This document shows, one piece after another, positions 3,116 through 35,988 of a stretch of 50,147 nt of DNA. The position numbers and the translations under genes were made by a program. The first letter of the stretch is position 1, and the number at the start of each line of letters is the position of its first letter. The notes under the pieces were generated by a model that worked only from the letters and a program-made list of their open reading frames with translations, made no database searches and was not told where the DNA came from. The stretch lies in NCBI GenBank assembly GCA_946406435.1, contig CAMJKP010000020.1, positions 1-50,147 of the forward strand, in the 5' to 3' direction. The stretch is from an uncultured Prevotellaceae bacterium. GTDB taxonomy: Bacteria; Bacteroidota; Bacteroidia; Bacteroidales; Bacteroidaceae.

Positions 3116-3467
3116 AAATACTCTTACTTGATTAGTTTATACATTTTTATACTAAAATCTTTTTACCTGTTTCATTTTGTCGGCAAAATTAATATTTTTT
3201 CTACAAAAATTGCAGATTTTATGCAGAAAAATGCATATTTTGTTACTTGGGCTGTCAAAAGGGAACAAATCTCTGGAAAAAAGTAACATTTTTGATTATT
3301 CCTTTGCTTAAAAAAGATAATTTTATACTTCCCAAAAACAATTGAAAATTGCTTTGGCGAATGATTTTTAATTAAGATTTTACTTTTACTTGCTAAATTT
3401 AGCGGATAACTTGCATTTTGCTTGGTGAGCTTGCTAACAATTCGTAATTATTTGTTACCTTTGTGGC
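3116..3467. promoter_or_regulatory. Divergent promoter region between susC and the HAD gene
   Basis: This AT-rich 352-bp gap holds promoters for both flanking genes. For the plus-strand HAD gene, TACCTTTG (3456-3463) fits the Bacteroidetes -7 box, with a TTG at 3431-3433 spaced 22 bp upstream. For susC, the complement of CAAAATTA (3184-3191) gives TAATTTTG, leaving a 5' UTR of about 60 nt. The -33 side for susC is weak. TTTGCTTGGTGAGCTTGCTAACAATTCG-like sequence (about 3417-3443) resembles a short repeat seen near 9669, 18504 and 37943. Confidence 0.6.
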
Positions 3468-21135: not shown

Positions 21136-21156
21136 TTCAGTAGTTTTCGCCTTCCA

Positions 21157-21192
21157 GCTCCCTCCCTACGGGGGAGGACGGGGGGAGAGGCC
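21157..21192. repeat. Palindromic element family A, single arm between GH105 and GH2
   Basis: GCTCCCTCCCTACGGGGGAG (from 21157) through GGGGGGAGAGGCC (to 21192) matches the 39-bp arm of family A with one change. It ends one base before the GH105 stop codon (21194-21196 on the minus strand). No second arm is near. Confidence 0.75.
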
Positions 21193-21193
21193 T

Positions 21194-22303
21194 CTATTCT
21201 AGCATCTTACAATACTCGGATGCCCCCATAAGGAAGAGACCGAGGGCATAGTCGTCGAAGTCTGGCTCGCGGTTATAGTCGATAGGCTGTGAGGATGCAG
21301 GACGGTCGCCTGAACCTTGTACGTAGCCGATGAAACCATCCTTGTGTATGCTTGACTTCAGAGCCTTCCAAGCCTTGTCAACGGCCGGCCTATACGTTTT
21401 CTTGTTGAGCACACCCTTATTCACACCCCATGCAAGACCATAGAAGAACTGGGCTGTGCCTGAGAACTCAGGACCTGCAAAATCCTGTGATACAAGACTC
21501 GGATTCCAGAAGCCGTCCTCACGCTGTACTGCGATAAGCGCCTTTGCCATATGCTTGTAGTCGTCAAGAAGTTGGCTATAGTATTTGTCCGTAGGCTGGA
21601 GATAGTTCATTACACGGCATAGGGCTGTGAAAACCCATCCGTTGCCACGACTCCAATAGCAGTTCTTTCCGTCGCTTTCCTTGTATGGGGCAACGAAATT
21701 CTTGTCGCGCCACCAAAGTCCATCATCCTCGTTGAAAAGACCATTTCCTCCACAGGTATCGCGTGTCCAGATATATGATTTCATCGCAAAGTTGAGGTAT
21801 TTGCGGTTGCCTGTTGCCATTGTCATCATGGCATAGCCTGGCATAGCCATCTGTATGGCGTCAATCCACGTCCACGCTTTATGGCGGTTGTTCGCAATCT
21901 GGTTGTTGAACACCTTCTGTATGTTCTTGTACTTGTTTTCCTTACCGTCGAGGAAATACCTTTGGCAATACACCTGACCGCAACACATATAATCGGCATC
22001 CTGTGTATCATAATCGTTCTTGTAGGGCCCCCATTTGTGGAAGTTGCCCCATTTATCGAGATACGCCAAGTATTTTTCCTGTGGATCTATATCGTATAGG
22101 TCGAGAAGTCCCTCGTAATAAACAGAACGTGTCCAGAGGTTGCTTTCATGGCCGGTTACAAAGTCAACGGAATCTGTCGGGTCATTCCATTTGCTCATGA
22201 AGTAATCGTTAGCCCTGTGTGCCAGTTCGAGTACTTCATCCTTTGTCTGAGCGTTAGCACCCAGAGACAGTATAGAAAGGATTAGTAGGAATAATTTCTT
22301 CAT
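21194..22303 (-). CDS. Glycoside hydrolase family 105/88 (unsaturated rhamnogalacturonyl hydrolase-like), secreted
   Basis: This protein of 369 residues has a signal peptide (MKKLFLLILSILSLGANAQ) and an (alpha/alpha)6 barrel like YteR/GH105. Characteristic parts are KAWTWIDAIQMAMPG (holding the candidate catalytic aspartate), DGLWWRDKNFV, NCYWSRGNGWVFTALCRVM and EFSGTAQFFYGLAWGVN. Such enzymes release the unsaturated galacturonyl residue left by rhamnogalacturonan or pectin lyases. It sits between the radical SAM gene and GH2 on the same strand; family B and A palindromes fill the two gaps. The secretion signal suggests a periplasmic location. Confidence 0.92.
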   Translation of the reverse strand: MKKLFLLILSILSLGANAQTKDEVLELAHRANDYFMSKWNDPTDSVDFVTGHESNLWTRSVYYEGLLDLYDIDPQEKYLAYLDKWGNFHKWGPYKNDYDTQDADYMCCGQVYCQRYFLDGKENKYKNIQKVFNNQIANNRHKAWTWIDAIQMAMPGYAMMTMATGNRKYLNFAMKSYIWTRDTCGGNGLFNEDDGLWWRDKNFVAPYKESDGKNCYWSRGNGWVFTALCRVMNYLQPTDKYYSQLLDDYKHMAKALIAVQREDGFWNPSLVSQDFAGPEFSGTAQFFYGLAWGVNKGVLNKKTYRPAVDKAWKALKSSIHKDGFIGYVQGSGDRPASSQPIDYNREPDFDDYALGLFLMGASEYCKMLE

Positions 22304-22323
22304 AAGGGAAATAATAGATTAAC

Positions 22324-22466
22324 AGCCCCTTACCCCATCCCTTTCCCCGCTCGGGGCAAGGGAGTAGTTACGCTTTATTGCTAAAAGCTTTTATGGTAGA
22401 GGCGTGATTAGAATTTCTATCTTGTCCCCCTTGCCCCGAGCGGGGAAAGGGACGGGGTTAGGGGCT
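22324..22466. repeat. Palindromic element family B between radical SAM and GH105 genes
   Basis: The left arm AGCCCCTTACCCCATCCC (from 22324) and the right arm ending GGGTTAGGGGCT (22466) are inverted repeats of about 40 bp with some 37 matches, around CCCCGCTCGGGGCAAGG. The 60-bp spacer has GTTACGCTTT and GAGGCGTGATTAG as in the murF-alr copy. The element ends 3 bp from the radical SAM stop codon and begins 20 bp upstream of the GH105 start. Confidence 0.85.
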
Positions 22467-22469
22467 TCC

Positions 22470-23249
22470 TTAATAGCTTGCCGAGCACTTTATCCCAATC
22501 TCTTCAACTCTTGCCTTGATAGCGTCAAGAGTCTCGTGAGATGCTTTTCTGAGGTCGTGGTCAGGTGTTTCTCGGTCTATGGTATAGATCATCACCATTT
22601 CAGGAGCAATCTCCTTTACAGCCTCAAGCCAAGGGGCAACGAAGTCCTCGCCTGTGTTGTCAACGTTCTTGCCTTGCGTTGTGCCTGTCATGAACATGGT
22701 CTGTATGATGCAATGACCATTGAATTTCTTCATGTTCTCTATGACATTCCTCACATCGTACGAAGGCTGTGTAGGGCGGTCAACGAGCTTGATGTACTCC
22801 GCATCTATTGTGTCGAGCTTCAGGATATTGTTGTCAACCTTCATCAGAGCCTTGCGGACATTCTCCTTGCCTATCATCGTGGCATTACTGAGGACTGATA
22901 CCTTCGCATTAGGGAAGTGCTTGTCGCGGATTCTGATTGTGTCCTCTATGATATTGAGGAAATCGGGATGGGCGGTAGGCTCGCCGTTGCCTGCAAAGGT
23001 CAGAACATCGGGCGTAACGCCTTCCTTTTTCATCTCCAATAGCTTGTTGTCAAGAGCCTCTGCCACAGCCTGACGTGAAGGGCGAGGGGTATGAGGACGG
23101 AAATCCGCATTAAATCCGCACTCGCAATATATACAGTCGAATGTGCAGCTCTTGCCATCACCAGGCTGTAGGTTAACGCCAAGCGAGACGCCAAGGCGAC
23201 GGCTGTGTATTGGTCCAAAAATTGGAGAAGGGTAGATTATTGTGCTCAT
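22470..23249 (-). CDS. Radical SAM protein (COG0731-like)
   Basis: This 259-residue protein has the 4Fe-4S motif CTFDCIYC (C35, C39, C42) and the SAM-binding segment LTFAGNGEPTAHPDF. The start FGPIHSRRLGVSLGVNL is typical of radical SAM proteins related to the TYW1/wyosine group (COG0731). The substrate is not evident. It is first in a minus-strand group with GH105 and GH2 although its function need not be connected. A promoter and one copy of the leader repeat lie upstream. Confidence 0.88.
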   Translation of the reverse strand: MSTIIYPSPIFGPIHSRRLGVSLGVNLQPGDGKSCTFDCIYCECGFNADFRPHTPRPSRQAVAEALDNKLLEMKKEGVTPDVLTFAGNGEPTAHPDFLNIIEDTIRIRDKHFPNAKVSVLSNATMIGKENVRKALMKVDNNILKLDTIDAEYIKLVDRPTQPSYDVRNVIENMKKFNGHCIIQTMFMTGTTQGKNVDNTGEDFVAPWLEAVKEIAPEMVMIYTIDRETPDHDLRKASHETLDAIKARVEEIGIKCSASY

Positions 23250-23280
23250 TGTTCCGATTTCTATGAATATCTACGATTTA

Positions 23281-23359
23281 GATGAGTGCTTTCTCGCACG
23301 AAAGAAAAGTGCATGTCAGCCCCAAAAGGCTGGCGCACGTTTTTGAAATTTGATGAGTG
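23281..23359 (-). promoter_or_regulatory. Leader repeat (third unit) upstream of the radical SAM gene
   Basis: This 79-bp unit matches the 83-bp units at 8970-9135: GATGAGTGC ends, CTCGCACGAAAG, the hairpin GTGCATGTCAGCC / GGCTGGCGCAC (23310-23338) and TTTGATGAGTG. On the minus strand it starts right after TACCTTTG, so it should form the 5' end of the mRNA. Confidence 0.75.
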
Positions 23360-23391
23360 CAAAGGTATAGAAAATAAATGTAAATTCCAAA
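23360..23391 (-). promoter_or_regulatory. Promoter of the radical SAM/GH105/GH2 group
   Basis: On the minus strand, TTTG (23388-23391) and TACCTTTG (23360-23367) are spaced by 20 bp, the best form of the Bacteroidetes promoter. The start codon is 110 bp downstream, after the leader repeat. Confidence 0.78.
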
Positions 23392-23502
23392 TTATTTGCC
23401 CGAAAAACTCAGAATTGCCCGATATTCCCATTTTTCGTCTCGTCACATATAGTTTTCCTTGCCGTTGTGATGTCTCAAAATAAGGATCTTCTTCCTAAGC
23501 TG

Positions 23503-23580
23503 CTCCATCGCTTGTCCATCGCTGCTCCATCGTTTCGATGGACTATCGATGGAGTAACGATGGAGTATCTTCGGACTTAG
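23503..23580. repeat. GATGGA fold-back repeat, copy 1
   Basis: Three CCATCG units (CTCCATCG, GTCCATCG, CTCCATCG) are followed by three inverted CGATGGA units, giving a long hairpin centred on CCATCGTTTCGATGG. The end TCTTCGGACTTAG also appears in similar form at the second copy (45956-46049). It lies in the 500-bp gap 23250-23750, whose remaining content is the leader repeat, promoter and a terminator. Confidence 0.7.
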
Positions 23581-23660
23581 AAGGGTATTGCTTGGGAGGA
23601 ACAAAGGCTTTGCTTATATCTTGCTTTTTATCATAAGCGTTCAGGACTGGGCAAGAAAAA

Positions 23661-23698
23661 TCCCACACGACCAAGGAAAAAAACTTGGTGGTGTGGGA
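23661..23698. terminator. Terminator hairpin downstream of the 175-residue secreted protein
   Basis: TCCCACACGACCAAG (23661-23675) pairs with CTTGGTGGTGTGGGA (23684-23698) with one mismatch. On the minus strand it is followed by TTTTTCTTGCCC, suited to ending the transcript of the gene at 23751-24278. Confidence 0.7.
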
Positions 23699-23750
23699 AA
23701 ACACAAGTTATGGATAGGGAGACATTTCTGTTATTGTTTCTTCGATATGG

Positions 23751-24278
23751 CTATTTCGAATCTGTTGGCCATAATTTTTTCAGTTTTAACTTTTTTATTT
23801 CCTTCTTCGTTAGTAGTCCTCTTATCCCCTCAGATGTGTCTAATGAGAAATTGTAATTTTTGCCTTCTAATGGATAGTACAGTTTTTTATATTTTTTATC
23901 GTCTAAATTGTATATTTTTATAACCACAAATGAAGCTTCAAACAGTTTTTTTTCAAATGGATCAAATGGTATGTCATAAAAATAATGTCGAGTCCCACCA
24001 TTCGTGTGTTTGTACCAACCGAAATGTAGTTCGATTTTCCCAGCAAATGTTTTTAGCTTGTTATAATCATCCATGTCTAATGACAGACATCCAGGATGAT
24101 AAAAGAACTTTATGTTTTCTGTTTCACCATTGTCTTTTTTTAGACTGATGTGTGATGGAGCTGAGATACCTCCAAACTCGTCATCTACAACGATGACGAA
24201 ATCGAAATCCTTTCTTTCTTGGGCAATAGCAATTATTACAGAAGAAAAGAAGAGTAATAACAAAGATAGTCTTTTCAT
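23751..24278 (-). CDS. Secreted hypothetical protein
   Basis: This protein of 175 residues has a signal peptide (MKRLSLLLLFFSSVIIAIAQ) and a mature part of about 155 residues rich in aromatic and charged residues (FHYPG, HFGWYKHTNGGTRHYFYDIPFDPF). No known motif is visible. The C-terminus is lysine-rich (LLTKKEIKKLKLKKLW). A TACTTTTG box (minus, 24316-24323) lies 37 bp upstream. It stands alone between divergent ftsX and the radical SAM promoter. Function is unknown; a beta-rich periplasmic or surface protein is plausible. Confidence 0.72.
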   Translation of the reverse strand: MKRLSLLLLFFSSVIIAIAQERKDFDFVIVVDDEFGGISAPSHISLKKDNGETENIKFFYHPGCLSLDMDDYNKLKTFAGKIELHFGWYKHTNGGTRHYFYDIPFDPFEKKLFEASFVVIKIYNLDDKKYKKLYYPLEGKNYNFSLDTSEGIRGLLTKKEIKKLKLKKLWPTDSK

Positions 24279-24394
24279 TGGTCTGCTCTATATATGATGT
24301 TGTTCTTTCTTTTGGCAAAAGTAACCAAAAATCCCGACAATACTATTTTACCTCAAGAACAAAAATAAATTTAATGTTAATAAGGCTTAAATAC

Positions 24395-24425
24395 TTGTAA
24401 GATTGGAGAATTTTTAGTTACTTTG
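24395..24425 (+). promoter_or_regulatory. Promoter of the ftsX operon
   Basis: TTG (24395-24397) and TTACTTTG (24418-24425) are spaced by 20 bp. The -7 box differs from TAnnTTTG at one position. The ftsX start is 62 bp downstream. Confidence 0.55.
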
Positions 24426-24487
24426 CACCGAAATTTGGTGTATTGTGTACCTATGCGCTGGATTTGATATTTATTTTAATAAAAATA

Positions 24488-25369
24488 ATGAAGAAGAAAA
24501 AGAAGTCAGGAGAAAAAAACAGAATAGGTCTTCAGGTGGTGACGCTCTGTATTAGTACGGCTCTTGTGCTGATACTCCTCGGAATGGTAGTGTTCACCGG
24601 TCTGACGGCTAATAATCTCTCCAATTATGTTAAGGAAAACCTCACCGTAACCGTTATGTTTGCAGACAATGTGTCTGACCAACAGGCAAAGGCTGCGTGT
24701 AAAAAGATAAAGAAGAAACATTATGTGCATCGTCTGGACTATATCAGTAAGGAGCAGGCTCTTAAAGAGCAGACTGCGGCTCTTGGGGCAAATCCGGCTG
24801 AGTTCCTTGGCGAGAATCCATTCACTCCTTCTGCTGAAATTCACCTTATCCCAGAATGTGCTAATGCTGATTCCATGAAGTGGATAGCAAAGCAGTTGAA
24901 GGCCGACAAGCAGGTTTCTGAGGTGACATACGAGAAGGACCTTATGAACAAAGTGAACAAGAGCCTGCGTAAGATAATGCTTGTGATGATTGTCATCGCT
25001 GTGCTTTTGTCGTTTGTCTCCTATACCCTTATCAGCAATACCGTTAGACTTGGCATCTACGCCCGTCGTTTCACCATACATACTATGAAACTCGTGGGCG
25101 CTTCGTGGTCTTTCATCCGTGCTCCGTTCCTCAAGATGGGTGCTTTACAGGGATTGCTTGCGGCCTTGATTGCCGATGCTGCCCTTGGCGGATGTATTGC
25201 GTGGCTGTATAAGTTTGAACCGGATATAACGGAGGTCGTAACTGTTGAGACTCTTGTCATCACGGGTGTCTCTGTTATTCTCTTCGGACTTATCATCACT
25301 ACTTTCTGCGTCTATCTCTCCTTGAATCATTTCTTGAAGATGAAGGCGAAAGACCTTTATAAGGTCTAA
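24488..25369 (+). CDS. ftsX: Cell division protein FtsX
   Basis: FtsX, with FtsE, forms the ABC-type complex that activates peptidoglycan hydrolases at the septum. This 293-residue form has an N-terminal membrane helix (about residues 17-40), an extracytoplasmic domain with TVTVMFADNVSDQQA and HRLDYISKEQAL, and three C-terminal membrane helices with the SYTLISNTVRLGIYARRFTIHTMKLVGAS junction. I chose ATG 24488-24490 (MKKKKKSG) because the upstream part of the frame is hydrophobic leader. ftsE is not adjacent, as is common in Bacteroidetes. A family A palindrome starts 6 bp after the stop. Confidence 0.95.
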   Translation: MKKKKKSGEKNRIGLQVVTLCISTALVLILLGMVVFTGLTANNLSNYVKENLTVTVMFADNVSDQQAKAACKKIKKKHYVHRLDYISKEQALKEQTAALGANPAEFLGENPFTPSAEIHLIPECANADSMKWIAKQLKADKQVSEVTYEKDLMNKVNKSLRKIMLVMIVIAVLLSFVSYTLISNTVRLGIYARRFTIHTMKLVGASWSFIRAPFLKMGALQGLLAALIADAALGGCIAWLYKFEPDITEVVTVETLVITGVSVILFGLIITTFCVYLSLNHFLKMKAKDLYKV

Positions 25370-25374
25370 AGGGA

Positions 25375-25522
25375 GGCCTCTCCCCCCGCCCTCCCCCGTA
25401 GGGAGGGAGCCGGAAGGCAAAAGGTGTTCGTTGAATAAAAATTTACAATATAGATAATTGGCTGATGTCCCCGTTGGCGAATCGGCTCCCTCCCTACGGG
25501 GGGAGGGCGGGGGGAGAGGCCG
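25375..25522. repeat. Palindromic element family A between ftsX and DUF3098 gene
   Basis: The left arm GGCCTCTCCCCCCGCCCTCC (25375-25413) and the right arm CGGCTCCCTCCC to GAGAGGCCG (25483-25522) are almost exact inverted repeats of 39 bp, around a 69-bp AT-rich spacer. It begins 6 bp after the ftsX stop and ends 11 bp before the next ATG, in the middle of an operon. Confidence 0.88.
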
Positions 25523-25532
25523 CTATTCTTTT

Positions 25533-25760
25533 ATGGAAAAGAAAAATTTAGCCTTAGGCAAAATTAATTTCATCATGCTTGCTATAAGCATGGTGATTGT
25601 GGTAATTGGTTTTGTAATGATGAGTGGTGCAAGTTCTGATACCACCCAGTACAATCCTGAGATCTTTAGTGCGATGCGCATCAAGGTAGCTCCTGTTGTC
25701 TGCTTCGTTGGTTTTGTTTCAATCATCGTCGGTATAATGTACCGCCCAAAGCAGAAGTAA
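25533..25760 (+). CDS. DUF3098 small membrane protein
   Basis: This protein of 75 residues matches the DUF3098 family, found between ftsX and uppP in Bacteroidetes. It has two membrane helices (about 14-33 and 52-70) and the conserved [13 protein letters not shown] start and [15 protein letters not shown] centre. The frame is open further upstream, but that part is the palindromic arm, so I chose ATG 25533-25535. The function is unknown; its constant neighbourhood suggests a role in the cell envelope. Confidence 0.9.
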
Positions 25761-25764
25761 ACGG

Positions 25765-26598
25765 ATGGATTGGTTACAGGCATTAATCCTTGGTCTTGTC
25801 CAGGGTTTTACAGAGTATCTTCCAGTTAGCTCAAGCGGTCATCTGGAGTTGGGTAAGATTATTCTCGGTCCAGAGGCAGAGGCTGGCGGACTTACATTCG
25901 ATATTGTAGTTCACGTTGCTACGGTTCTAAGTACTCTCGTTATCTTGTGGAGAGAGGTGATTTGGATATTCGCAGGTCTGTTCCGTCGTGACAATCGTGT
26001 GAACGATGAACAGAAGTATGTCATCAATATCCTTATCTCTATGATTCCTGTCGGAATTGTCGGACTCTTCTTCAAGGATTATATTGAGTCTCTCTATGCA
26101 AATAATGTGATTGTGGTTGTTGGATACTGTCTGCTCGTGACCGCATTCCTTCTTGCCCTCACTCATTTCTACACACCAAGAGAGAAGGATAAGATTTCTC
26201 CTCTGCATGCATTTATCATCGGTATTGCTCAGGCTTGTGCCGTTCTTCCTGGACTTTCACGTTCTGGCTCTACAATTGCCACCGGACTTCTCCTTGGCAA
26301 CAGCCGCAAGAACCTCGCACAGTTCTCATTTCTGATGGTTATCCCACCTATTCTTGGTGAGGCTCTCTTGGACTTCAAGCATATCTTCGCTCCTTCTGCA
26401 GAATATCTTGCAGAACATGGTGGTGAGGCAGCTGCAGTTCCTGCAAGTTCACTTATCGTAGGTTTTATTGCTGCCTTCATCAGCGGATGTATCGCTTGTA
26501 AGTGGATGATTGCCCTTGTGAAGAAGTGCAAGCTCATATACTTTGCTATCTACTGTGCAATTGTTGGTGCTATCGCGCTGTATTGCAGCACACTTTAA
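25765..26598 (+). CDS. uppP: Undecaprenyl-diphosphatase UppP (BacA)
   Basis: UppP removes a phosphate from undecaprenyl diphosphate, recycling the lipid carrier for peptidoglycan and surface polysaccharides. The 277-residue integral membrane protein carries both family motifs: [20 protein letters not shown] (residues 10-29; with the key glutamate E17) and the [17 protein letters not shown] loop with the catalytic arginine near residue 165. It follows DUF3098 after 4 bp and precedes truB by 11 bp, so the four genes form one operon. Confidence 0.96.
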
Positions 26599-26609
26599 AA
26601 CAATTGTAA

Positions 26610-27440
26610 ATGGTAAATTGTACATCCAAAAGATGTCTGGATTTCCAGCAAGGAGAATTTATCTACTTCAACAAACCTTACGGAATGTCGAGCTTCGGGG
26701 CACTTGCCTTTGTGCGTACTCGCATTTCACAAAGGGTGGATGTGAAAAGAGTGAAGACCGGTCATGCCGGAACTCTCGACCCTCTTGCAACTGGTGTGCT
26801 GATTCTTTGTACAGGTAAGGCTACAAAGCAGATAGAGTCGCTTCAGCTTAACGACAAGGAATATACCGCCACCTTGCAGTTTGGTGCTACTACTCCGAGC
26901 TTTGACATGGAATATACGGTTGACCACACCTATCCTAAGCGTCATATCACCCGTGAGAAAGTGGAGGAGGCTCTAAAGCAGTTTGTCGGCGATATAATGC
27001 AGGTGCCACCTGTATTTTCTGCTTGCAACGTGAACGGAAAGCGTGCCTACGAGCTTGCAAGAAAGGATAAGGAGGTTGAGCTTCAGCCAAAGCAGGTAAG
27101 AGTGGATGAGATAGAGCTTCTTGACTTTAACGACGAACTCAAGCAGGCGAGAATAAGGGTGGTGTGCGGAAAAGGCACTTATATCCGTTCTCTTGCACGA
27201 GACATAGGCGAGGCTCTGGATAGTGGTGCTTATCTCACGGCTCTTTGCAGAACCCGTCTCGGAGATGTGAGAATAGAAGATTGCCATACCATAGACAACT
27301 TTCAGGAATGGCTTGATGCTCAAGAGGTTGCTCCATACGTTGAGTGCGTTCAGAATCCTCCGGGAACAGGTAAAAAGAAGAATAAAAAGAAGAGGAAGAG
27401 ACCTCTCCCCCCGTCCTCTCCCATAGAGAGGGAAGTCTGA
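26610..27440 (+). CDS. truB: tRNA pseudouridine(55) synthase TruB with element-encoded C-terminus
   Basis: TruB converts U55 of tRNA to pseudouridine. The 276-residue protein has the catalytic motif KTGHAGTLDPLATGVL with the nucleophile D57, plus GKATKQIESLQLNDKEYTA and the C-terminal CGKGTYIRSLARDIG. The last residues after the basic linker GKKKNKKKRKR are PLPPSSPIEREV, and these and the stop codon come from the left arm of a family A palindrome (27399 on). Loss or replacement of the native tail is likely; it is not part of the catalytic core. It precedes queA by 147 bp of palindrome sequence. Confidence 0.95.
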   Translation: MVNCTSKRCLDFQQGEFIYFNKPYGMSSFGALAFVRTRISQRVDVKRVKTGHAGTLDPLATGVLILCTGKATKQIESLQLNDKEYTATLQFGATTPSFDMEYTVDHTYPKRHITREKVEEALKQFVGDIMQVPPVFSACNVNGKRAYELARKDKEVELQPKQVRVDEIELLDFNDELKQARIRVVCGKGTYIRSLARDIGEALDSGAYLTALCRTRLGDVRIEDCHTIDNFQEWLDAQEVAPYVECVQNPPGTGKKKNKKKRKRPLPPSSPIEREV

Positions 27441-27568
27441 TATTAATAACATCGGAGTATGTGCCAGCCGTAAGGCGAAAAAAATAGCAATAAGAATGAA
27501 ATAATACAACCGATCCTCCATTGTCGAATCGGCTCCCTCCCTACGGGGGAGGGCGGGGGGAGAGGCCG
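27399..27568. repeat. Palindromic element family A at the truB/queA junction
   Basis: The left arm AGACCTCTCCCCCCGTCC carries the 33-bp insertion type (ATTAATAACATCGGAGTATGTG) and the right arm (27530-27568) is the 39-bp CGGCTCC to GAGAGGCCG form. The element supplies the last codons and stop of truB and ends 20 bp before the queA ATG. Confidence 0.86.
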
Positions 27569-27587
27569 TTTTTTTATTTATATATAG

Positions 27588-28784: not shown

Positions 28785-28824
28785 ACCCCTATCTCGTCAA
28801 GGGAGAAGAGAGATTCCAATAGAT

Positions 28825-29337
28825 ATGCAAATCATCATTTATGGTAGTCTGTATGGCTCTACAAAGCGATATGCCGAGCACTTGTCGGAGATTACGGGGA
28901 TAGAAGCCGTTTCCTTCAAGGATGCAAAGGATATTGCGAAGTATGACAGGATTATCTATATGGGTGCTCTTTTTGCCGGGAGTGTCTTGGGATTAAGGAA
29001 AACAGCCAGTAGGATGTCTGTCGGACAAAAGCTGACAATCATTACTGTTGGTATGGTTGATCCTGCTGATCCAGAGAATATTGAGTATATTCGTCGTTCT
29101 ATAAAGGACAGAGTTCCGTCGCATCTCTATGACGAAACGCAGATATACCATCTCCGTGGTGCTATTGATTACAGTAATCTCACCCTAAAACATAGGATGA
29201 TGCTATCTGTAATCCATTGGAAAATCTCGAAGATGCCAGAGGAAAAGCTTAATGTCGAGTCAAAGACTATTCTTTCTATCTACGGCAAAAAACTTGACTG
29301 TGTTGATTTCAAATCATTGGATAAGATAGATTTATGA
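28825..29337 (+). CDS. Flavodoxin-domain protein
   Basis: This 170-residue protein has a flavodoxin-like fold: the FMN phosphate loop is YGSLYGSTKRYAEHLSE, followed by DRIIYMGALFAGSVLGLRKTA and the strand KLTIITVGMVDP. The architecture is like HemG-type or other flavodoxin-domain proteins that lack a membrane anchor. The C-terminal half (LKHRMMLSVIHWKISKMPEEKLN) is similar to the HemG-like families. The substrate is not readable. Its stop overlaps the folK start by four bases (ATGA). Confidence 0.83.
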   Translation: MQIIIYGSLYGSTKRYAEHLSEITGIEAVSFKDAKDIAKYDRIIYMGALFAGSVLGLRKTASRMSVGQKLTIITVGMVDPADPENIEYIRRSIKDRVPSHLYDETQIYHLRGAIDYSNLTLKHRMMLSVIHWKISKMPEEKLNVESKTILSIYGKKLDCVDFKSLDKIDL

Positions 29338-29837
29338 GTATAGAGCAGAATAGCAGCGAAAATGTGAATGAGGTCTTTGGGCATTCCGGCTCCCTCCCTA
29401 CGGGGGAGGGCGGGGGGAGAGGCCTTCATACTGTCTATTTCTCTCTTGGCTCAAATCTTGGCAACAAGCGCGAGAACTTAAACAAAGCTATAAAACTAAT
29501 GGAAGAGCAGATTGGCGTGTTAGTACGTCAGTCTGCTTTTCTCGCTACAGAGCCTTGGGGCTTTCAGTCGGATAACTCATTTGTAAATGCCGCTATCTGT
29601 ATGGAGACAGAGCTTGATCCGTTTGAGGTTCTTGAAAGAACTCAGAAGATAGAGCGTGAGATGGGTAGAACTATGAAATCCACCAATGGAGAATATCACG
29701 ACAGAATTATTGATATTGATATTCTTCTCTTTGACGACCTGAAGATAAACACTCCTCGTCTCACTATCCCCCATCCGCTAATGTCACAAAGGGATTTTGT
29801 CATGATTCCGTTGAGGGAGATACTTCTTTCCGAATAG
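29334..29837 (+). CDS. folK: HPPK (FolK) with an element-encoded N-terminal insertion
   Basis: FolK pyrophosphorylates 6-hydroxymethyl-dihydropterin in folate synthesis. The core starts at VYFSLGSNLGNKRENL (about residue 34) and holds RQSAFLATEPWG, NAAICMETELDP and the active-site DRIIDIDILLFDD. Typical HPPK proteins begin almost at the SLGSNLG strand, so the first 33 residues are extra. Residues about 18-31 (SGSLPTGEGGGRG) come from a 39-bp family A arm in frame. The start ATG overlaps the flavodoxin-like gene; an element-free start would not be available within this frame until the core. Confidence 0.94.
   Translation: MSIEQNSSENVNEVFGHSGSLPTGEGGGRGLHTVYFSLGSNLGNKRENLNKAIKLMEEQIGVLVRQSAFLATEPWGFQSDNSFVNAAICMETELDPFEVLERTQKIEREMGRTMKSTNGEYHDRIIDIDILLFDDLKINTPRLTIPHPLMSQRDFVMIPLREILLSE
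29386..29424. repeat. Palindromic element family A, single 39-bp arm inside folK
   Basis: CGGCTCCCTCCCTACGGGGG to GAGAGGCC is almost identical to the right arms at 25483 and 33495. It adds 13 codons and keeps the frame. Confidence 0.85.
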
Positions 29838-29898
29838 TTCTGCGTTGCGTGTATAAAAACTTTTTTTGAAACTGACTTCGATATCTTGTAGAAGTACC

Positions 29899-30038
29899 TC
29901 CGTTTCTCCTTCGCTCTTCTTTCGCTTCTCCTCCGTTCATTCTCTAGTTAATAAGCGAAGGCAGAGGGGAAGCATAAGGGCGGAAAATGGGACTTACATG
30001 GGACTTACTACGGACTTACTTGGGAGCTACATGGGAGT
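29899..30038 (+). repeat. Composite repeat with GGACTTAC units, copy 2
   Basis: TCCGTTTCTCCTTCGC at 29899 and ATGGGACTTACATGGGACTT near 29985-30005 match the complement of 9480-9588 in order. It sits between the stop codons of the convergent folK and the 294-residue secreted protein gene. Confidence 0.65.
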
Positions 30039-30045
30039 AGCAAGT

Positions 30046-30930
30046 TCAATAGTTCAAGATGAAATTCTCTTCTTTTAGATTAATAATCACTTTGCGACCT
30101 TTATTGTCTGATAAACTTATAATTGAGATTGGTTGAAGTGATTGGTCTTTCAGCTCATGTAATTTATCGTCAATTAGAGCATAGGTTCTGTTTTTGCCGT
30201 TTAGCGTGTAACTATACATTTTTATACTGCCAGATATTTTTGCAATTTGATGTTTGCTACTTGGCTCTTTAATGTTAGAGACATACAGAGTCTTTGAAAG
30301 AAAATCCTCAGAGTTTTGGGTGTAGTAAATATTGCCAGATTGATCCATAGAAAAGTCTGGACAATCCTTAATGAATCTTGTCAAAGTCTTTCTCTTTTTA
30401 TCAAAAACATACAAGTCATATTGTACGGAGATAAGATAAAAATCCTCAAATGAGAATATTGTTGAAATTTGCCACTCCATTTCCTCTGGATGACAAGGGG
30501 CCGTTTGACGGAAAGCAATCTTACCGTCAACGTAATACATTATATTGACCTTTTCGTAAGAAGAATCAATCTCTGCTACAATAATATCATTATCTCCAAT
30601 ATAGAAATTATCAATATTAAATTTTGTTCTAAGGAGAATAGAATCTTTATTGTTTCCTTTGGAAAGATGTATTTTCTTTATTGTATTCTTGTCGCAATAG
30701 TATAGGACATCGTTCAAAACTTTTGCTTCAATAGAGAAAAGTGAATCTGTTTGATTTGTTTGGGAATTCCAGAAATACACATTCTTTTCTTTCTCCTCAC
30801 TATCTGTATGAGTAGAATATATTACACAAGGTGAGTTTGATGACATAAATTCACCTTTGAAAGTCTTTGTATTTTGGGCAACTGATGGAATTGCAAATAG
30901 CATCAGTAATAATGTGATGATTGTCTTCAT
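30046..30930 (-). CDS. Secreted hypothetical protein, possibly beta-propeller-like
   Basis: This 294-residue protein has a signal peptide (MKTIITLLLMLFAIPSVAQ). The mature part alternates beta strands and turns with recurrent aromatic and charged pairs (NVYFWNSQTNQ, YYCDKNTIKKI, YDLYVFDKKRK, GNIYYTQNSED), which suggests a repeated beta architecture. No known motif is recognised. A promoter (TTTG and TATCTTTG on the minus strand, 30983-30986 and 30956-30963, spacing 19) lies 25 bp upstream. Function unknown. Confidence 0.76.
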   Translation of the reverse strand: MKTIITLLLMLFAIPSVAQNTKTFKGEFMSSNSPCVIYSTHTDSEEKEKNVYFWNSQTNQTDSLFSIEAKVLNDVLYYCDKNTIKKIHLSKGNNKDSILLRTKFNIDNFYIGDNDIIVAEIDSSYEKVNIMYYVDGKIAFRQTAPCHPEEMEWQISTIFSFEDFYLISVQYDLYVFDKKRKTLTRFIKDCPDFSMDQSGNIYYTQNSEDFLSKTLYVSNIKEPSSKHQIAKISGSIKMYSYTLNGKNRTYALIDDKLHELKDQSLQPISIISLSDNKGRKVIINLKEENFILNY

Positions 30931-30955
30931 TTGGCATGAAAAAGAAAAACTGTGG

Positions 30956-31043
30956 CAAAGATATAAACTTTTCTTTATATCACAAAGAGAATGGTGTTTT
31001 TTATGGATTTATTTTGCTGTATGGGGATTTTTGTTTACTTTTG
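30956..31043. promoter_or_regulatory. Divergent promoters between the secreted protein and YcxB-like genes
   Basis: On the minus strand TTTG (30983-30986) and TATCTTTG (30956-30963) are 19 bp apart. On the plus strand TTTG (31013-31016) and TACTTTTG (31036-31043) are also 19 bp apart. Each points at its own flanking gene. Confidence 0.72.
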
Positions 31044-31075
31044 TACTCGGTTTTTATATTATTGATATTTAAGTT

Positions 31076-31567
31076 ATGCAAGAAACTCCATTATTTACGA
31101 TTAGATACTATAATAGTGTTGAACTGATGTTCGACTATACGAAACTGTTGCCTGCTTATAAGCGGACAATAAGGAACTATCGCATTGTGAGTATTTTTTG
31201 TGTGATAATGCTTGTGCTGAATTTCCTTCTTAATGGGAGCGATGTGGATTGGGTAATGCAGGGCTTTTGGCTGTTGTTTTCTGGGTATGTTTTTGTTGTT
31301 CCTTTATTGGTTAAGAACCGTGTTGGGAGACAATTCAAAAAAGACCCTACTCATGCAAATGAAAATGTGATGACGATATTTGAAGATCGTATTGAAATTG
31401 ATAATAAGGTTTCTCATGCTTCAATGGCGTATGAGGGGATTCTTCGTATTGCAGAGACATCTATTGGAGTTCATTTGTTTTTCTCTGACGTAAAGGCTCT
31501 GTGCATTCCGCAAGAGGCTATTCCTGAGCAGGCAATAGAGTTTTTGAGGAAGAAAATCGCGATATAA
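31076..31567 (+). CDS. YcxB-like membrane protein
   Basis: This 163-residue protein has two membrane helices (about residues 41-58 and 68-83) followed by a cytoplasmic PH-like domain (ENVMTIFEDRIEIDNKV, MAYEGILRIAETSIGVHLFF, ALCIPQEAI). This layout fits the YcxB-like family. The role of that family is unknown. It has its own promoter, and rpsO follows with a separate promoter. Confidence 0.8.
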   Translation: MQETPLFTIRYYNSVELMFDYTKLLPAYKRTIRNYRIVSIFCVIMLVLNFLLNGSDVDWVMQGFWLLFSGYVFVVPLLVKNRVGRQFKKDPTHANENVMTIFEDRIEIDNKVSHASMAYEGILRIAETSIGVHLFFSDVKALCIPQEAIPEQAIEFLRKKIAI

Positions 31568-31646
31568 GATGACTCGTTAAATGTTAAAATTGCGTATTTA
31601 CAAGCAAAATATCAAGTCTTTATTCTTTATTCTTGAGAAAAATTGC

Positions 31647-31775
31647 TAACTTTGCACCCGCAAATGAAAATTTGCTGCATTCGATGATGGCAAACCGCGT
31701 CAGTGATTAGACGTAATGCATCAGAAGGATGTAATAAAAATTTATTATTAATCACATTAATTTTTCTTTTACATT
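31647..31775 (+). promoter_or_regulatory. rpsO promoter box and structured leader
   Basis: TAACTTTG (31647-31654) fits the -7 box; a -33 box is not clear. The leader of about 110 nt can form two short hairpins: GCGTC/GACGT (31698-31714) and GCATC AGAAG GATGT (31718-31732). S15 controls its own mRNA through leader structures in several phyla, so an autoregulatory site is possible here. Confidence 0.5.
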
Positions 31776-32045
31776 ATGTATTTGGATTCAGCCAAGAAGA
31801 CTGAGATCTTCGGTCAGTACGGTAAGTCAGCTACTGACACAGGTTCTGCAGAGAGCCAGATCGCTCTCTTCACATTCCGTATCAAGCACCTTACAGAGCA
31901 CCTTAAGGAGAACCATAAGGATTACAAGACTGCTCGTAGTCTTACAATGCTCGTAGGTAAGCGTCGCGCTCTCCTCGACTACCTCAAGGATCGTGACATC
32001 AACCGCTACCGTACTATCATCAAGGCTCTCGGTCTGCGTAAGTAA
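31776..32045 (+). CDS. rpsO: 30S ribosomal protein S15
   Basis: S15 binds 16S rRNA early in assembly of the small-subunit platform. The 89-residue protein matches the family over its length: TGSAESQIALFTFRIKHLTEHLKEN, the conserved HKDYKTARSLTMLVGKRRALLDYL and the C-terminal RYRTIIKALGLRK. It has its own promoter and a terminator directly downstream, so it is a single-gene unit. Codon use is strongly biased, as expected of a highly expressed gene. Confidence 0.98.
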   Translation: MYLDSAKKTEIFGQYGKSATDTGSAESQIALFTFRIKHLTEHLKENHKDYKTARSLTMLVGKRRALLDYLKDRDINRYRTIIKALGLRK

Positions 32046-32069
32046 TCTCTTACAAGCGCAAAAGGATGG

Positions 32070-32118
32070 ATCTCCAGCAAGGCATCACTCAAAAAGGATG
32101 TCATGTTGGAGATTTTTT
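32070..32118 (+). terminator. rpsO terminator
   Basis: ATCTCCAGCA (32070-32079) pairs with TGTTGGAGAT (32104-32113) with one wobble, and an inner CATC/GATG extends it. A run of six T follows. The fkp ATG lies 22 bp further on. Confidence 0.75.
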
Positions 32119-32139
32119 ATTAAACAGGCCATATCTATT

Positions 32140-35013
32140 ATGAAAAAACTACTATCTCTCCCACCTAATCTGGTGGATTGTTTTCACGATATCACAGGAT
32201 TGTCTCGCGAGGAATGGTTCTGTACCAACGACCCTGTTGGTGCAAAGCTCGGTTCTGGCGGTGGCACCACATGGCTCATGCAGGAGTATGAGAAGTCGGA
32301 ATACTATGATAATCAGTCAACTGAAGGAAAACCAGAAAAACGTCTTATCCTTCATGCTGGCGGTCAGAGCCGTCGCCTTCCTGCGTATGCTCCTTCGGGA
32401 AAAATCCTTACTCCTATCCCTGTGTTTCGTTGGGAGAGAGGTCAGCGTTTGTCGCAGGATCTCCTTTCGCTTCAGGTGCCTTTGTATGAGAAGATAATGT
32501 CGGTTGCTCCTGACGGTCTTCGCACTATGATTGTGAGTGGCGATGTGTATATCCGTGCTACTCAGCCTATTGGCGAGATTCCAGATGCGGATGTGGTGTG
32601 CTATGGTCTTTGGCTCGGTCCAGAGATTGCTTGCGATCACGGCATCTTCGTTTCTTCGCATGAGAAGCCAGGAATCTTGAAGTGCATGATGCAAAAGCCA
32701 TCTGTCCAGACACTCTCTCAGCTCCTTGAAAATCATTACTACCTTACGGACATCGGCATCTGGCTGCTATCAGATAAGGCGATGCAAGTGCTTAGGAATA
32801 AGTCGCTTAATGCAGACGGAAGCATAAGGGAATACGACCTTTATTCGGAGTTCGGTTGTGGATTGGGTACTGATCCTACTACCCCTGATGATGAGGTTAG
32901 CCAACTCTCGGTTGCTATCCTTCCGTTGCCTGGTGGTGAGTTCTATCACTATGGCACAACTCACGAGATTCTGTCCTCTACCCTTGCCGTTCAGAATATC
33001 GTAAATGATCAGCGAGAGATAATGCACCATTCCAGAAGGCCGCATCCTTCCATGTTTGTGCAGAATTCTGAGATGAAGATAAAACTGACAGACAAAAATC
33101 AGAATATCTGGATAGAAAACTCATGGATAGGCGAGAAATGGTCGCTTACGAGGGATAATGTCATTACTGGCGTTCCTGAGAATGATTGGGAGATTAGTCT
33201 TCAGCCTGGGCAATGCGTTGATATTGTGCCGATTGGCGAAAAGGGTTATGCCGTCCGTACCTACGGCTTTAATGATAAGTTTGCAGGGAAGTTGCAGTTC
33301 ACGCCGTTGTTCCCTGTTGTAGAGAATATTGAGGAAATGGGACGCGTACTGAAAGAGATGCTGCGGCCTCTCCCCCCGCTTTGCACATACTCCGATGTTA
33401 TAAACATCGAACTTCCCTCCGTAGGGAGGGAGCCGGAGTGCTCAAATCCAGAAGAGTCCAAACTTTCCTTAAATGAATCTTTTGAAGGCGTTAGCGGCTC
33501 CCTCCCTACGGGGGAGGGCGGGGGGAGAGGCCGAGTTTCTGCCGAGCAAATCTCATCTCAAGCTAACCTCCGTCGCTTGACGGCTCAGAGAAAGCGTTTC
33601 CGTGCGCTTTGTTGGCCTTCTATTGCCGAAAATTATCGTCATAGCGTGTTCTTCCAGACGGATCTTGGCGATGCAGCACAGGACTTTGCTGCTAACAATA
33701 TCACTATTCCACAGCCTATCAGCGAGGATAATCCGCTACTCACACGAGTGCACGATAATATGTTCCGTGCTGAGGTGAAACGACTTCGTGGTGAGGACGA
33801 TACGGCTGATGCTCAGGAGGCTTTCAGACTTCTTCGTCAAGGACTTACCGAGACCGTAAAGGCTGAGATTGAGAATCAGAAATCACCTCGTATGTCGGTG
33901 TATGGTGATCAGATTGTGTGGGGCAGGTCGCCTGTTCGTATCGACATAGCCGGTGGCTGGACAGACACCCCTCCTTACTGTCTGATGGAGGGTGGAAATG
34001 TTATCAATCTTGCCATTGAACTGAACGGTCAGCCACCTCTTCAGGCATACGTTAAGCCTTGCAAGGAGCATCACATCATTCTCCGAAGCATTGACCTTGG
34101 CGCGTCAGAGGTCGTTAAGACCTACGAGGAACTTGCTGATTTCTACCACGTTGGCTCTCCGTTCTCAATTCCGAAGGCTGCCCTCGTACTTGCAGGTTTC
34201 CAGCCAGGCTTCTGCATCGAGAAGTTCGATTCATTGGAAAAGCAGTTGGAGGCATTCGGCTGTGGCATAGAACTCACCATGCTTTCGGCTATTCCCGCAG
34301 GCTCAGGACTTGGCACGAGCAGCATCCTTGCAAGTACCGTGCTTGGCGCGTTGAATGATTTCTGCGGACTGGCATGGGATAAGCAGGAGATAGGTCGTCG
34401 TACGCTTGTTCTCGAACAACTCCTTACTACTGGCGGCGGTTGGCAGGATCAGTTTGGCGGTTTGCTTCAGGGCATCAAGCTCCTCCAGACAAAGCGAGGC
34501 TTCGACCAGAGCCCTACGGTTCATTGGCTGCCTTCAGAGCTTTACACCCAACCAGAGTATCGTCAATGCCACCTTCTCTATTACACAGGCATCACTCGCA
34601 CGGCAAAGACCTTGTTGGCTGAGATTGTCCGTAGGATGTTCCTGAACAACCACGATGAGATTGCTCTCTTGCGTGATATGAAGGAGCACACGCTTAATCT
34701 CTATGAAACGATTCAGAGGAATGACTTCGTGGGCTTGGGTAAGGCTATCCGCAAGACTTGGGCGCAGAATCAGGCTATTGACGGAGGTACGAATCCTGCA
34801 GGTGTCAAGGCCATAAGTGATATGGTTGATGACCTCTGTCTCGGCTACAAGCTCCCTGGCGCTGGCGGTGGCGGCTATCTCTACATGGTGGCAAAAGATC
34901 CAGATGCCGCTGCTCGTATCAGACAGATTCTCAACGCTAATCCTCAGAATGCGAATGCCCGTTTCGTGGAGATGACATTGAGCGAGAAGGGGTTGCAGGT
35001 GAGCCGGAGCTAA
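32140..35013 (+). CDS. fkp: Bifunctional L-fucokinase / GDP-L-fucose pyrophosphorylase with in-frame palindromic element
   Basis: Fkp phosphorylates L-fucose and converts the product to GDP-fucose for decoration of surface glycans; it is known in Bacteroides. The N-terminal half is the pyrophosphorylase (LHAGGQSRRLPAYAPSGKIL). The C-terminal half is a GHMP kinase (GRSPVRIDIAGGWTDTPPYC, AIPAGSGLGTSSILA, PGAGGGGYLYMVAKD). I chose ATG 32140-32142 (MKKLLSLPPNL), giving 957 residues; the open frame runs further upstream across rpsO and its terminator. Residues about 409-465, between the two catalytic halves, come from a complete family A element (RPLPPLCTYSDVINIE... SGSLPTGEGGGRG). The spot seems to be a tolerant linker. 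Confidence 0.95.
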   Translation: MKKLLSLPPNLVDCFHDITGLSREEWFCTNDPVGAKLGSGGGTTWLMQEYEKSEYYDNQSTEGKPEKRLILHAGGQSRRLPAYAPSGKILTPIPVFRWERGQRLSQDLLSLQVPLYEKIMSVAPDGLRTMIVSGDVYIRATQPIGEIPDADVVCYGLWLGPEIACDHGIFVSSHEKPGILKCMMQKPSVQTLSQLLENHYYLTDIGIWLLSDKAMQVLRNKSLNADGSIREYDLYSEFGCGLGTDPTTPDDEVSQLSVAILPLPGGEFYHYGTTHEILSSTLAVQNIVNDQREIMHHSRRPHPSMFVQNSEMKIKLTDKNQNIWIENSWIGEKWSLTRDNVITGVPENDWEISLQPGQCVDIVPIGEKGYAVRTYGFNDKFAGKLQFTPLFPVVENIEEMGRVLKEMLRPLPPLCTYSDVINIELPSVGREPECSNPEESKLSLNESFEGVSGSLPTGEGGGRGRVSAEQISSQANLRRLTAQRKRFRALCWPSIAENYRHSVFFQTDLGDAAQDFAANNITIPQPISEDNPLLTRVHDNMFRAEVKRLRGEDDTADAQEAFRLLRQGLTETVKAEIENQKSPRMSVYGDQIVWGRSPVRIDIAGGWTDTPPYCLMEGGNVINLAIELNGQPPLQAYVKPCKEHHIILRSIDLGASEVVKTYEELADFYHVGSPFSIPKAALVLAGFQPGFCIEKFDSLEKQLEAFGCGIELTMLSAIPAGSGLGTSSILASTVLGALNDFCGLAWDKQEIGRRTLVLEQLLTTGGGWQDQFGGLLQGIKLLQTKRGFDQSPTVHWLPSELYTQPEYRQCHLLYYTGITRTAKTLLAEIVRRMFLNNHDEIALLRDMKEHTLNLYETIQRNDFVGLGKAIRKTWAQNQAIDGGTNPAGVKAISDMVDDLCLGYKLPGAGGGGYLYMVAKDPDAAARIRQILNANPQNANARFVEMTLSEKGLQVSRS
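33364..33533. repeat. Palindromic element family A, complete copy inside fkp
   Basis: The left arm is the 72-bp form (33364-33435), with its inner ACTCCGATGTTATAAACATCG hairpin, and the right arm is the 39-bp form (33495-33533). The two are inverted to each other around a 59-bp spacer. The fkp frame stays open across the full 170 bp. Confidence 0.88.
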
Positions 35014-35086
35014 AGACCCACCCCCTTGCCCCCTGACACATACTCCGATGTTATCAACATCGGACTTCCCATAAAGGGAGGGGAGT
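35014..35086. repeat. Palindromic element family A-like copy between fkp and the GSCFA gene
   Basis: It begins directly after the fkp stop with AGACCCACCCCCTTGCC, has the family A inner palindrome CCGATGTTATCAACATCGG (35045-35063), then ACTTCCCATAAAGGGAGGGG. It ends 17 bp before the next ATG. Confidence 0.75.
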
Positions 35087-35103
35087 AGATAGAATTTAAA
35101 GTT

Positions 35104-35988
35104 ATGGAGTTTCGAACAAAGATAGAGTTAGAAAAATCATCTTTTAAGATTAATCCGACGGACAAACTTCTGTTCGTTGGCTCATGCTTTGCGGAGAACA
35201 TCGGACGGCGATTCGTCGATAATCAGTTTGATGCTATCGTCAATCCGTATGGCACGATGTATAATCCTGCGAGTGTGTACCATTCGGTAAAGAGAGCCTT
35301 GGAGGGCGTTAGCGGCTCCATCCCTACGGAGGGAAGTCCGATGTTGATAACATCGGAGTATGTGCAAAGCGGGGGGAGAGGCCGCTTCGATGTTGCCATC
35401 TTCACCCTCGGCACTAACCACATCTACATCCTGAAGGAGACGGGTGAGATAGTGGATAACTGCATGAAGCGTCCGCAAAGGTTGTTTCGTGAAGAGCAAC
35501 TGAGCGTGGATGAGTGTGCTGATTATCTCTCAAAGGCGGTTGGACTTCTGAAGGAGCGTAACCCAGAGGTGAAGGTGGTGTTTACGGTAAGCCCGATAAG
35601 ATATGCGAAGTACGGTTTCCACGGCTCTCAGCTATCCAAGGCAACGCTCTTGCTGGCTGTTGACAAACTCGTCACCGCATCGCCTGAGACCATCAGTTAT
35701 TTCCCTGCCTACGAGATTATGAACGATGAACTTCGCGACTATCGTTTCTATCAGCCCGATATGCTTCACCCTTCGGAGCAGGCGGTGGATTATATCTACG
35801 AGCGGTTTGCCGAAACGTATTTCTCGGAAGAGGCAAATGCAATGGTTGCTGAATGGGAACCCATCAAGGCGGCACTCGCACATCGTCCGTTCAATCCCGA
35901 TAGCGAAGAGCATAAAGCCTTTCTCGCCAAGGTCACAGCCAAGAAGGAAGCCTTTCTTGCGAAGTGGAAATGTTCAATTAACAATTAA
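35104..35988 (+). CDS. GSCFA-domain protein with element replacing a native segment
   Basis: This 294-residue protein belongs to the GSCFA family, named for the GSCFAENIG motif seen here at about residues 26-34, and related to SGNH-type hydrolases. Other conserved parts are NPYGTMYNPASVYHSVKRAL, FTLGTNHIYILKETGEIVDNC, VVFTVSPIRYAKYGFHGSQLSKATL and MLHPSEQAVDYIYERF with the His near the C-terminus. Residues 70-94 (SGSIPTEGSPMLITSEYVQ...) come from a 72-bp family A arm. From memory of the family, about 40-50 native residues normally found between RAL and the FTLGT strand are missing, so this is a replacement rather than a pure insertion. Activity may be altered. Confidence 0.9.
   Translation: MEFRTKIELEKSSFKINPTDKLLFVGSCFAENIGRRFVDNQFDAIVNPYGTMYNPASVYHSVKRALEGVSGSIPTEGSPMLITSEYVQSGGRGRFDVAIFTLGTNHIYILKETGEIVDNCMKRPQRLFREEQLSVDECADYLSKAVGLLKERNPEVKVVFTVSPIRYAKYGFHGSQLSKATLLLAVDKLVTASPETISYFPAYEIMNDELRDYRFYQPDMLHPSEQAVDYIYERFAETYFSEEANAMVAEWEPIKAALAHRPFNPDSEEHKAFLAKVTAKKEAFLAKWKCSINN
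35313..35384. repeat. Palindromic element family A, 72-bp arm inside the GSCFA gene
   Basis: CGGCTCCATCCCTACGGAGG at the start, AAGTCCGATGTTGATAACATCGG inside (split stem) and GGGGGGAGAGGCCG at the end. It is the inverted counterpart of 33364-33435 in fkp and is exactly 24 codons long. Confidence 0.87.

What the first reader, a model, noticed from the sequence alone, without database searches (positions are those of the whole stretch)
21157..35384. Family A: a palindromic element with 39- and 72-bp arms spread over 14 kb, inside and between genes
At least eight sites carry an arm CGGCTCC...GAGAGGCCG: 21157-21192, 25375-25522, 27399-27568, 29386-29424, 33364-33533 (both arms), 35014-35086 (diverged) and 35313-35384. 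The arm is 39 bp or, with an inserted inner hairpin (CCGATGTT..AACATCGG), 72 bp. Both are multiples of three. By hand translation five of the six frames of the 39-bp arm have no stop. Such a design lets it enter genes without breaking them. This is like Rickettsia palindromic elements in principle, but the sequence is unrelated as far as I can see, and no transposase is near.
Basis: partly seen in the sequence, partly recalled or inferred. Interest (0 to 1): 0.93.

Follow-up and report, generated by a model that had tools for sequence, protein, structure and literature searches.

The report
Hairpin elements swapping inside bacterial genes
Prevotella-type bacteria carry dozens of copies of a short hairpin-forming DNA element that sits snugly between neighbouring genes and, in frame, inside core genes; sister species in several cases hold a different hairpin at the very same spot, so the elements are likely mobile and apparently replace one another.

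Summary
The repeat is real and genome-wide: 84 copies of the 38-nt arm (up to 3 mismatches, control 0), and exact arms in seven named Bacteroidales/Prevotella MAGs. Arms form inverted pairs (outer ends GGCC, variable spacer) or stand singly. Of 71 pairs placed between genes, 68 lie between tandem genes. In the own or sister genomes arms lie in frame inside folK, fkp, GSCFA, tilS, tsaD, uvrD, murB, ftsZ, a CCA-type transferase and a P-type ATPase (four in one species). At in-gene sites 36 of 39 length differences are multiples of three, against 40 of 84 elsewhere. The 33-nt piece behind the 72-bp arm is a separate nested element: 46 of 48 copies lie directly 5' of TCCC/ACCC, inside at least four families. 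Site 35014-35086 is that piece in another family. Closest known kinds: REPINs and Rickettsia RPEs, but there is no GTAG/CGTC end and no Y1 transposase in this 81%-complete assembly. Two other palindrome groups of sister genomes do flank Y1 genes. The mechanism (Y1-type mobilisation in trans plus in-place replacement) is inferred.

The parts
21155..21192 (+). single family-A arm, between genes; no arm at this place in G135
25375..25521 (.). family-A pair (arm - 70 nt spacer - arm) filling the gap between an ftsX-like gene (stop 25369) and a DUF3098 gene
   Evidence: occupied also in G135; in G146 an A pair with unrelated spacer
27399..27568 (.). family-A pair; truB reads into the left arm and ends at 27440; beside the left arm a copy of piece B (27434-27466, - strand)
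29387..29424 (+). single arm in frame near the N terminus of HPPK (folK, 29334-29837): ..GHSGSLPTGEGGGRGL..; A in G135, other palindrome arms at the same place in G144 and G146
33364..33533 (.). A pair (72-nt arm, 59-nt spacer, 38-nt arm) in frame in the linker between the two domains of Fkp (32140-35013); a pair of another family (D) there in G135
33381..33413 (+). 33-nt nested piece B in the left arm of the fkp insert
35313..35384 (+). 72-nt arm (A plus B) in frame in a loop of a GSCFA protein (35104-35988); family D pair in G135, A arm plus another hairpin in G095
32127..32130 (.). GGCC just upstream of fkp: exact empty site (or scar) of a 194-bp A pair present in G144 with matching flanks
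22324..22466 (.). pair of another palindrome family (F4); the same place holds an A pair in G135, G095 and G144

Best explanation
Family A is a short palindromic element (arm - spacer - arm, outer ends GGCC) with many copies in the genomes of a group of Prevotella-type bacteria, likely a non-autonomous mobile element that would be moved as folded single-stranded DNA by a Y1-type (IS200/RAYT-like) transposase acting in trans. Shown: the same ends in many contexts, filled and empty sites (two of them exact, without a target duplication unless one GGCC counts as such), copies between tandem genes and in frame inside core genes, and different palindrome families at the same site in sister species. 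Inferred: the enzyme; that insertion is into single-stranded DNA; that an existing element is replaced in place (by ectopic conversion between A copies, and by loss and re-entry or a hairpin-templated switch between families). The 33-nt piece B is inferred to be a second, nested element that enters the foot of other palindromes next to GGGA (TCCC on the other strand). In genes the arm likely survives because it adds whole codons and is open in five of six frames.
For: 84 copies against 0 in control. Strict pairing: of 167 neighbouring arms less than 300 bp apart, 154 are -/+, 7 ++, 6 --, none +/- (set partly redundant). Clean site pairs: 194-bp pair against GGCC, and a pair against nothing at a poly-A site; a 143-bp pair against an uninterrupted site, with 13-15 further nt in the filled copy. 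Spacers are shared in 5 of 33 element pairs of one 20-kb stretch (3 of 10 within 2.5 kb) against 20 of 1289 pairs of different stretches, p=3e-4. A-against-A at the same site: spacer clearly homologous in 17 and unrelated in 7 of the 24 comparisons the script could read, i.e. discrete replacement. Family exchange: sister gaps without A hold another inverted repeat in 24 of 37 against 45 of 147 length-matched gaps, p=2e-4; with a stricter score 15 of 38 against 32 of 199, p=0.003. Five in-gene sites. Frame: 36 of 39 against 40 of 84, p=9e-7. Piece B: 46 of 48 directly before TCCC/ACCC. Y1 genes of sister genomes are flanked by two other palindrome groups.
Against: No Y1 domain in this assembly (81% complete) nor in G148. 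Of the 11 Y1 matches in the six other A-bearing genomes seven loci were examined: they are of at least three kinds and none has family-A ends. The G135 RAYT-like protein has no match in six A-bearing genomes (no positive control in that call). No ORF recurs between widely spaced arms except two cases read as the same or orthologous host genes. Most spacers are not shared between copies, unlike a recent MITE. Of nine sister sites with 60 nt or less in place of an A pair only one holds GGCC and only two are exact; others keep 5-30 nt of other sequence, so no target motif is shown for A. The local-copying signal and the AT-rich families would also fit replication template switching.
Confidence: 0.5

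Rival explanations
1. No dedicated enzyme: replication-fork template switching at hairpins copies arms and whole elements from nearby palindromes into sites that already hold one, so families overwrite one another.
For: Local sharing of spacers; exchange at occupied sites is above background; composite arms, such as A with B and A preceded by another hairpin; at ATPase site 3 the exchanged families share their outer letters (CCGG..GGCC); AT-rich inverted-repeat families made of short tandem words; template switching is described as homogenising inverted-repeat arms (PMC8604942, start of abstract seen in the listing).
Against: Element and B boundaries are the same in many different contexts, which points to enzyme-defined ends; no clear spacer inversion, a mark named in that abstract, in 24 comparisons.
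Confidence: 0.27
2. The differences between species come from ordinary homologous recombination and gene flow: gene segments carrying different ancient elements are exchanged between species.
For: Several sister genomes share the families; flanks of differing sites are often 85-98% alike.
Against: At ATPase site 3 the left flank of G135 is nearly that of G144 while the element differs, and does not resemble that of G095, the other A holder; empty and filled sites with matching flanks.
Confidence: 0.1
3. The elements are kept for an RNA function between genes of operons (stem-loop that protects or separates cistrons), and any palindrome family will do; in-gene copies are tolerated by-products.
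For: 68 of 71 A pairs placed between genes lie between tandem genes, against 354 of 462 background gaps; 53 of 74 neighbouring gene 3' ends are 0-20 nt from the element; a pair folds at -111 kcal/mol as RNA, z -10.
Against: Empty sites exist at orthologous junctions; in-gene sites exchange families as well; no expression data.
Confidence: 0.1
4. Assembly artefact or a conserved protein motif.
For: The seven named genomes are titled MAG and the own genome is a 127-contig draft.
Against: Same family in MAG sets of several projects; frame kept in 36 of 39; absent from distant homologues read.
Confidence: 0.03

Closest known systems
REPINs / REP doublets with RAYT (PMC3116915, passages read)
   Same: two inverted short palindromes with a less conserved spacer, predicted to fold as one hairpin; doublets plus singlets; defined ends
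   Different: no RAYT found in this assembly; many in-frame genic copies; different families at one site in sister species; nested 33-nt element
Rickettsia palindromic elements (RPE; described in PMC3733652, section 15 read)
   Same: short palindromic inserts translated in frame inside core genes
   Different: different phylum; mainly intercistronic pairs; RPE sequences were not compared here
GTAG/CGTC REP families, some intragenic (PMC3733652, passages and section 15)
   Same: palindromes inside ORFs; the paper notes different REPs at about the same site in recB of X. campestris and X. oryzae, a precedent for the exchange seen here
   Different: A ends in CGGC/GGCC, not GTAG or CGTC
IS200/IS605 elements and palindrome-associated derivatives (PATE; papers seen only in the listing, features recalled)
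   Same: piece B: hairpin element directly 3' of a fixed tetranucleotide (GGGA), no target duplication; Y1 genes of sister genomes flanked by palindromes matching F16/F41 or F43 and F45-F48
   Different: no parent IS found for A or B

Membership tests
REPIN/RAYT | inverted REP doublet with spacer | tested here: met
   154 of 167 neighbouring arms <300 bp apart are -/+, none +/-
REPIN/RAYT | matching RAYT (Y1) gene in the genome | tested here: not met
   PF01797: 0 in G000, 81% complete; seven of the 11 Y1 matches of other A-bearing genomes examined, none with A ends beside it
REPIN/RAYT | singlets more diverged than doublets | tested here: inconclusive
   36/38 or better: paired arms 154 of 159, genic singles 28 of 35 (p=0.001), other singles 30 of 30; all singles 58 of 65 (p=0.04; rank test p=0.20). 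Only arms of exactly 38 nt counted: 159 of 178 paired, 65 of 76 single
GTAG/CGTC REP superfamilies | GTAG or CGTC at one end | tested here: not met
   ends are CGGC and GGCC; GTAG lies only at the hairpin loop
Rickettsia palindromic element | in-frame palindromic insert in protein genes | tested here: met
   39 of 76 singles and 9 of 89 pairs lie in ORFs of 150 aa or more (a few of these ORFs look spurious); frame kept 36 of 39
Rickettsia palindromic element | sequence homology to an RPE family | not tested
   no Rickettsia sequence was fetched
DDE-type MITE | target site duplication | tested here: not met
   two exact empty sites: one with a single GGCC (a 4-bp duplication of GGCC cannot be excluded there), one with none and no duplication
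IS200/IS605-derived (for piece B) | fixed flanking tetranucleotide, no duplication, subterminal hairpin | tested here: met
   46 of 48 before TCCC/ACCC; hairpin in the fold of the 72-nt arms
IS200/IS605-derived (for piece B) | parent IS with the same ends | tested here: inconclusive
   B hairpin absent from seven Y1 gene loci; not searched genome-wide

The most novel reading that the evidence does not exclude
In these bacteria certain points in genes and operons are exchangeable hairpin slots: different palindromic elements replace one another in place, in frame, so that core proteins (folate enzyme, fucose enzyme, ATPase, cobalamin enzyme) carry swappable peptide inserts that differ between sister species, with a 33-nt second-order element nesting inside the palindromes themselves.
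Probability: 0.5. Interest if true: 0.85.

Novelty: new variant of a known kind. Interest (0 to 1): 0.74.

Why it matters
Translated palindromic inserts have been described from Rickettsia and several other genomes (PMC3733652). Here, in Bacteroidota, they reach ftsZ, murB, tilS, tsaD, uvrD and a four-insert ATPase (own and sister genomes together), and sister species with different elements at the same codon position make the open question of how such elements enter and leave genes testable by comparison. It also warns that annotated Gly- or Pro-rich stretches (GSLPTGEGGGRG, APSLRGRAGGEA, RPLPPPSPVGREP) in proteins of these bacteria are element-derived.

Tried and rejected
Conserved protein motif: rejected, distant homologues that were read lack it. 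Phage or plasmid origin: 170-bp fkp insert, no match in plasmids or phages; exact 33-mer, 0 in viral contigs. Known RNA family: five hits, all below gathering score, two at E below 1e-3 (microRNA models matching a long hairpin), taken as chance. Autonomous copy with a gene between A arms: 10 -/+ spans with an ORF; two matches among them (100% and 92% identical), read as the same or orthologous host genes. Spacer inversion by template switching: none clear in 24. First inverted-repeat finder (self-BLAST) missed most pairs and was replaced (its control shuffles single bases in 200-bp blocks). Failed scripts: one search timed out; one search stopped after printing the frame counts, the rest was redone. 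A first count of 3 of 7 near neighbours was made on a cut list; the full count is 3 of 10.

Full report
Observation. In the own genome (G000, 3.37 Mb, 127 contigs, 81% complete) the 38-nt core has 84 matches with up to 3 mismatches against 0 for the reversed pattern. Of 59 relatives drawn, 4 have 30-mers with 2-3 mismatches. One title names buffalo rumen; that RUG stands for rumen genomes is recalled.

Anatomy. In the fetched G000 loci arms form 36 inverted pairs and 29 singles; 28 of the 36 spacers are 48-103 nt, the longest 364. In a larger, partly redundant set, neighbouring arms less than 300 bp apart are -/+ in 154, ++ in 7, -- in 6 and never +/-. Of 154 spacers 110 have some other hit, often the same or an orthologous place or AT-rich words. 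Filled and empty sites show arm-spacer-arm to be the unit: 194 bp in G144 against GGCC in the window at 32127-32130, and an insertion at a poly-A site with no duplication; seven further short sister sites are less exact. The 39-nt arm folds no better than shuffles (z -0.8); the 72-nt arms do (z -3.7, -2.7), and a whole pair as RNA strongly so (z -10).

Piece B. The 33 nt that turn the 39-nt arm into 72 nt occur elsewhere (26 of 50 rows). Of 48 distinct copies in fetched DNA 42 are directly followed by TCCC and 4 by ACCC, inside A arms on either side and inside F2, F13-like, D and other palindromes. Several look like clean 33-nt additions.

Where it sits. Of 89 A pairs in G000, G135 and G095 sequence, 68 lie between tandem genes, 3 between convergent, none between divergent, 7 inside an ORF, 11 unplaced; background gaps are 354/55/53 (p=2e-5). 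Of 74 gene 3' ends next to pairs, 53 lie 0-20 nt from the element, 17 run into it, 4 are further off; of 68 starts, 36 lie within 20 nt and 23 overlap. Single arms are inside ORFs of 150 aa or more in 39 of 76 cases, pairs in 9 of 89. Inside genes 33 of 38 singles run sense. Hosts checked with Pfam: HPPK, Fkp, GSCFA and TruB; FtsZ, MurB, a PP-loop protein read as TilS, TsaD, UvrD, CCA/poly(A) polymerase family, P-type ATPase, RsmF-type methyltransferase, CobB/CbiA and a CbiG fusion. In the P-type ATPase G135 has four arms. Across six species the sites show 38-nt and 72-nt forms, empty and decayed states, and at the third site A (G135, G095), another family with the same outer letters (G144, G145, G000) and a third (G146).

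Exchange. G135 carries a family D pair at the fkp and GSCFA sites where the window has A; G095 has A plus another hairpin in GSCFA. At folK, G144 and G146 have other palindrome arms; at CobB, G147 has another pair. Inverted-repeat sites compared in both directions gave 33 same family, 26 different, 41 without a recognised pair, of 100. Sister gaps lacking A hold another inverted repeat in 24 of 37 against 45 of 147 length-matched gaps. One case has at least 98% flank identity (G135 A against a TTTACCAT-type repeat in G144). When both hold A, spacers are homologous in 17 and unrelated in 7 of 24 (one of the 7 shares both ends). Spacers are shared in 5 of 33 pairs of one stretch, 3 of 10 within 2.5 kb, against 20 of 1289; in G135 one such copy sits where G000 has family F4.

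Frame. At in-gene sites 36 of 39 non-zero length differences are multiples of three, elsewhere 40 of 84. Two of the three exceptions are in ORFs that look spurious; the third is the GSCFA-G135 comparison with uneven trimming.

Mechanism. Constant ends in varied contexts, no clear target duplication, the inverted hairpin pair and the fixed tetranucleotide beside B resemble Y1-type single-strand transposition (features of that type recalled). G000 has no Y1 domain; 6 of 8 A-bearing genomes have one, of different kinds, none of the seven examined with A ends beside it. However Y1 genes in G095 and G145 are flanked by palindromes matching F16/F41, and those of G144, G146 and G147 by palindromes matching F43 and F45-F48, most of them single in the clustering; an F16 element sits at the place of window 35032-35089 in G095. 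So palindromes paired with Y1 genes share these slots; the enzyme for A remains unknown, and template switching is the main rival.

Literature. Passages of PMC3116915 and passages plus section 15 of PMC3733652 were read; other papers only as search listings. Among the papers listed none was seen on such elements in Prevotella; only this library was searched.

Noticed in passing
G135 L203 10219-12948: One P-type ATPase gene with four in-frame family-A arms; sister species have different subsets.
   Followed up: yes
L348, L359 (G095, G145); L356-L358 (G146, G147, G144): Y1 transposase genes flanked by palindromes that match dispersed inverted repeats F16/F41 and F43, F45-F48.
   Followed up: partly
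L346 (G135:C159) 2424-3218: 265-residue RAYT-like ORF flanked by its own palindromes (GTACACAAAAGGGACGG..); no match in six A-bearing genomes.
   Followed up: partly
G000, G135, G095 stretches: 24 inverted-repeat clusters of two or more and 27 single ones, some AT-rich and built of short tandem words, 215 repeats in about 1.0 Mb of sampled sequence, 0 in 0.16 Mb shuffled.
   Followed up: partly
family-A pairs: Inner ends come in classes (..TC..GAAT); GAAT-type/GAAT-type pairs are absent among 138 elements while mixed TC/GAAT pairs number 44.
   Followed up: no
window 36262-36425: AT-rich inverted repeat pair around a TATA-rich palindrome.
   Followed up: no
G095 L225 17091-18401: 72-nt arm in frame in the C-terminal part of FtsZ, after the Pfam domains.
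   Followed up: partly
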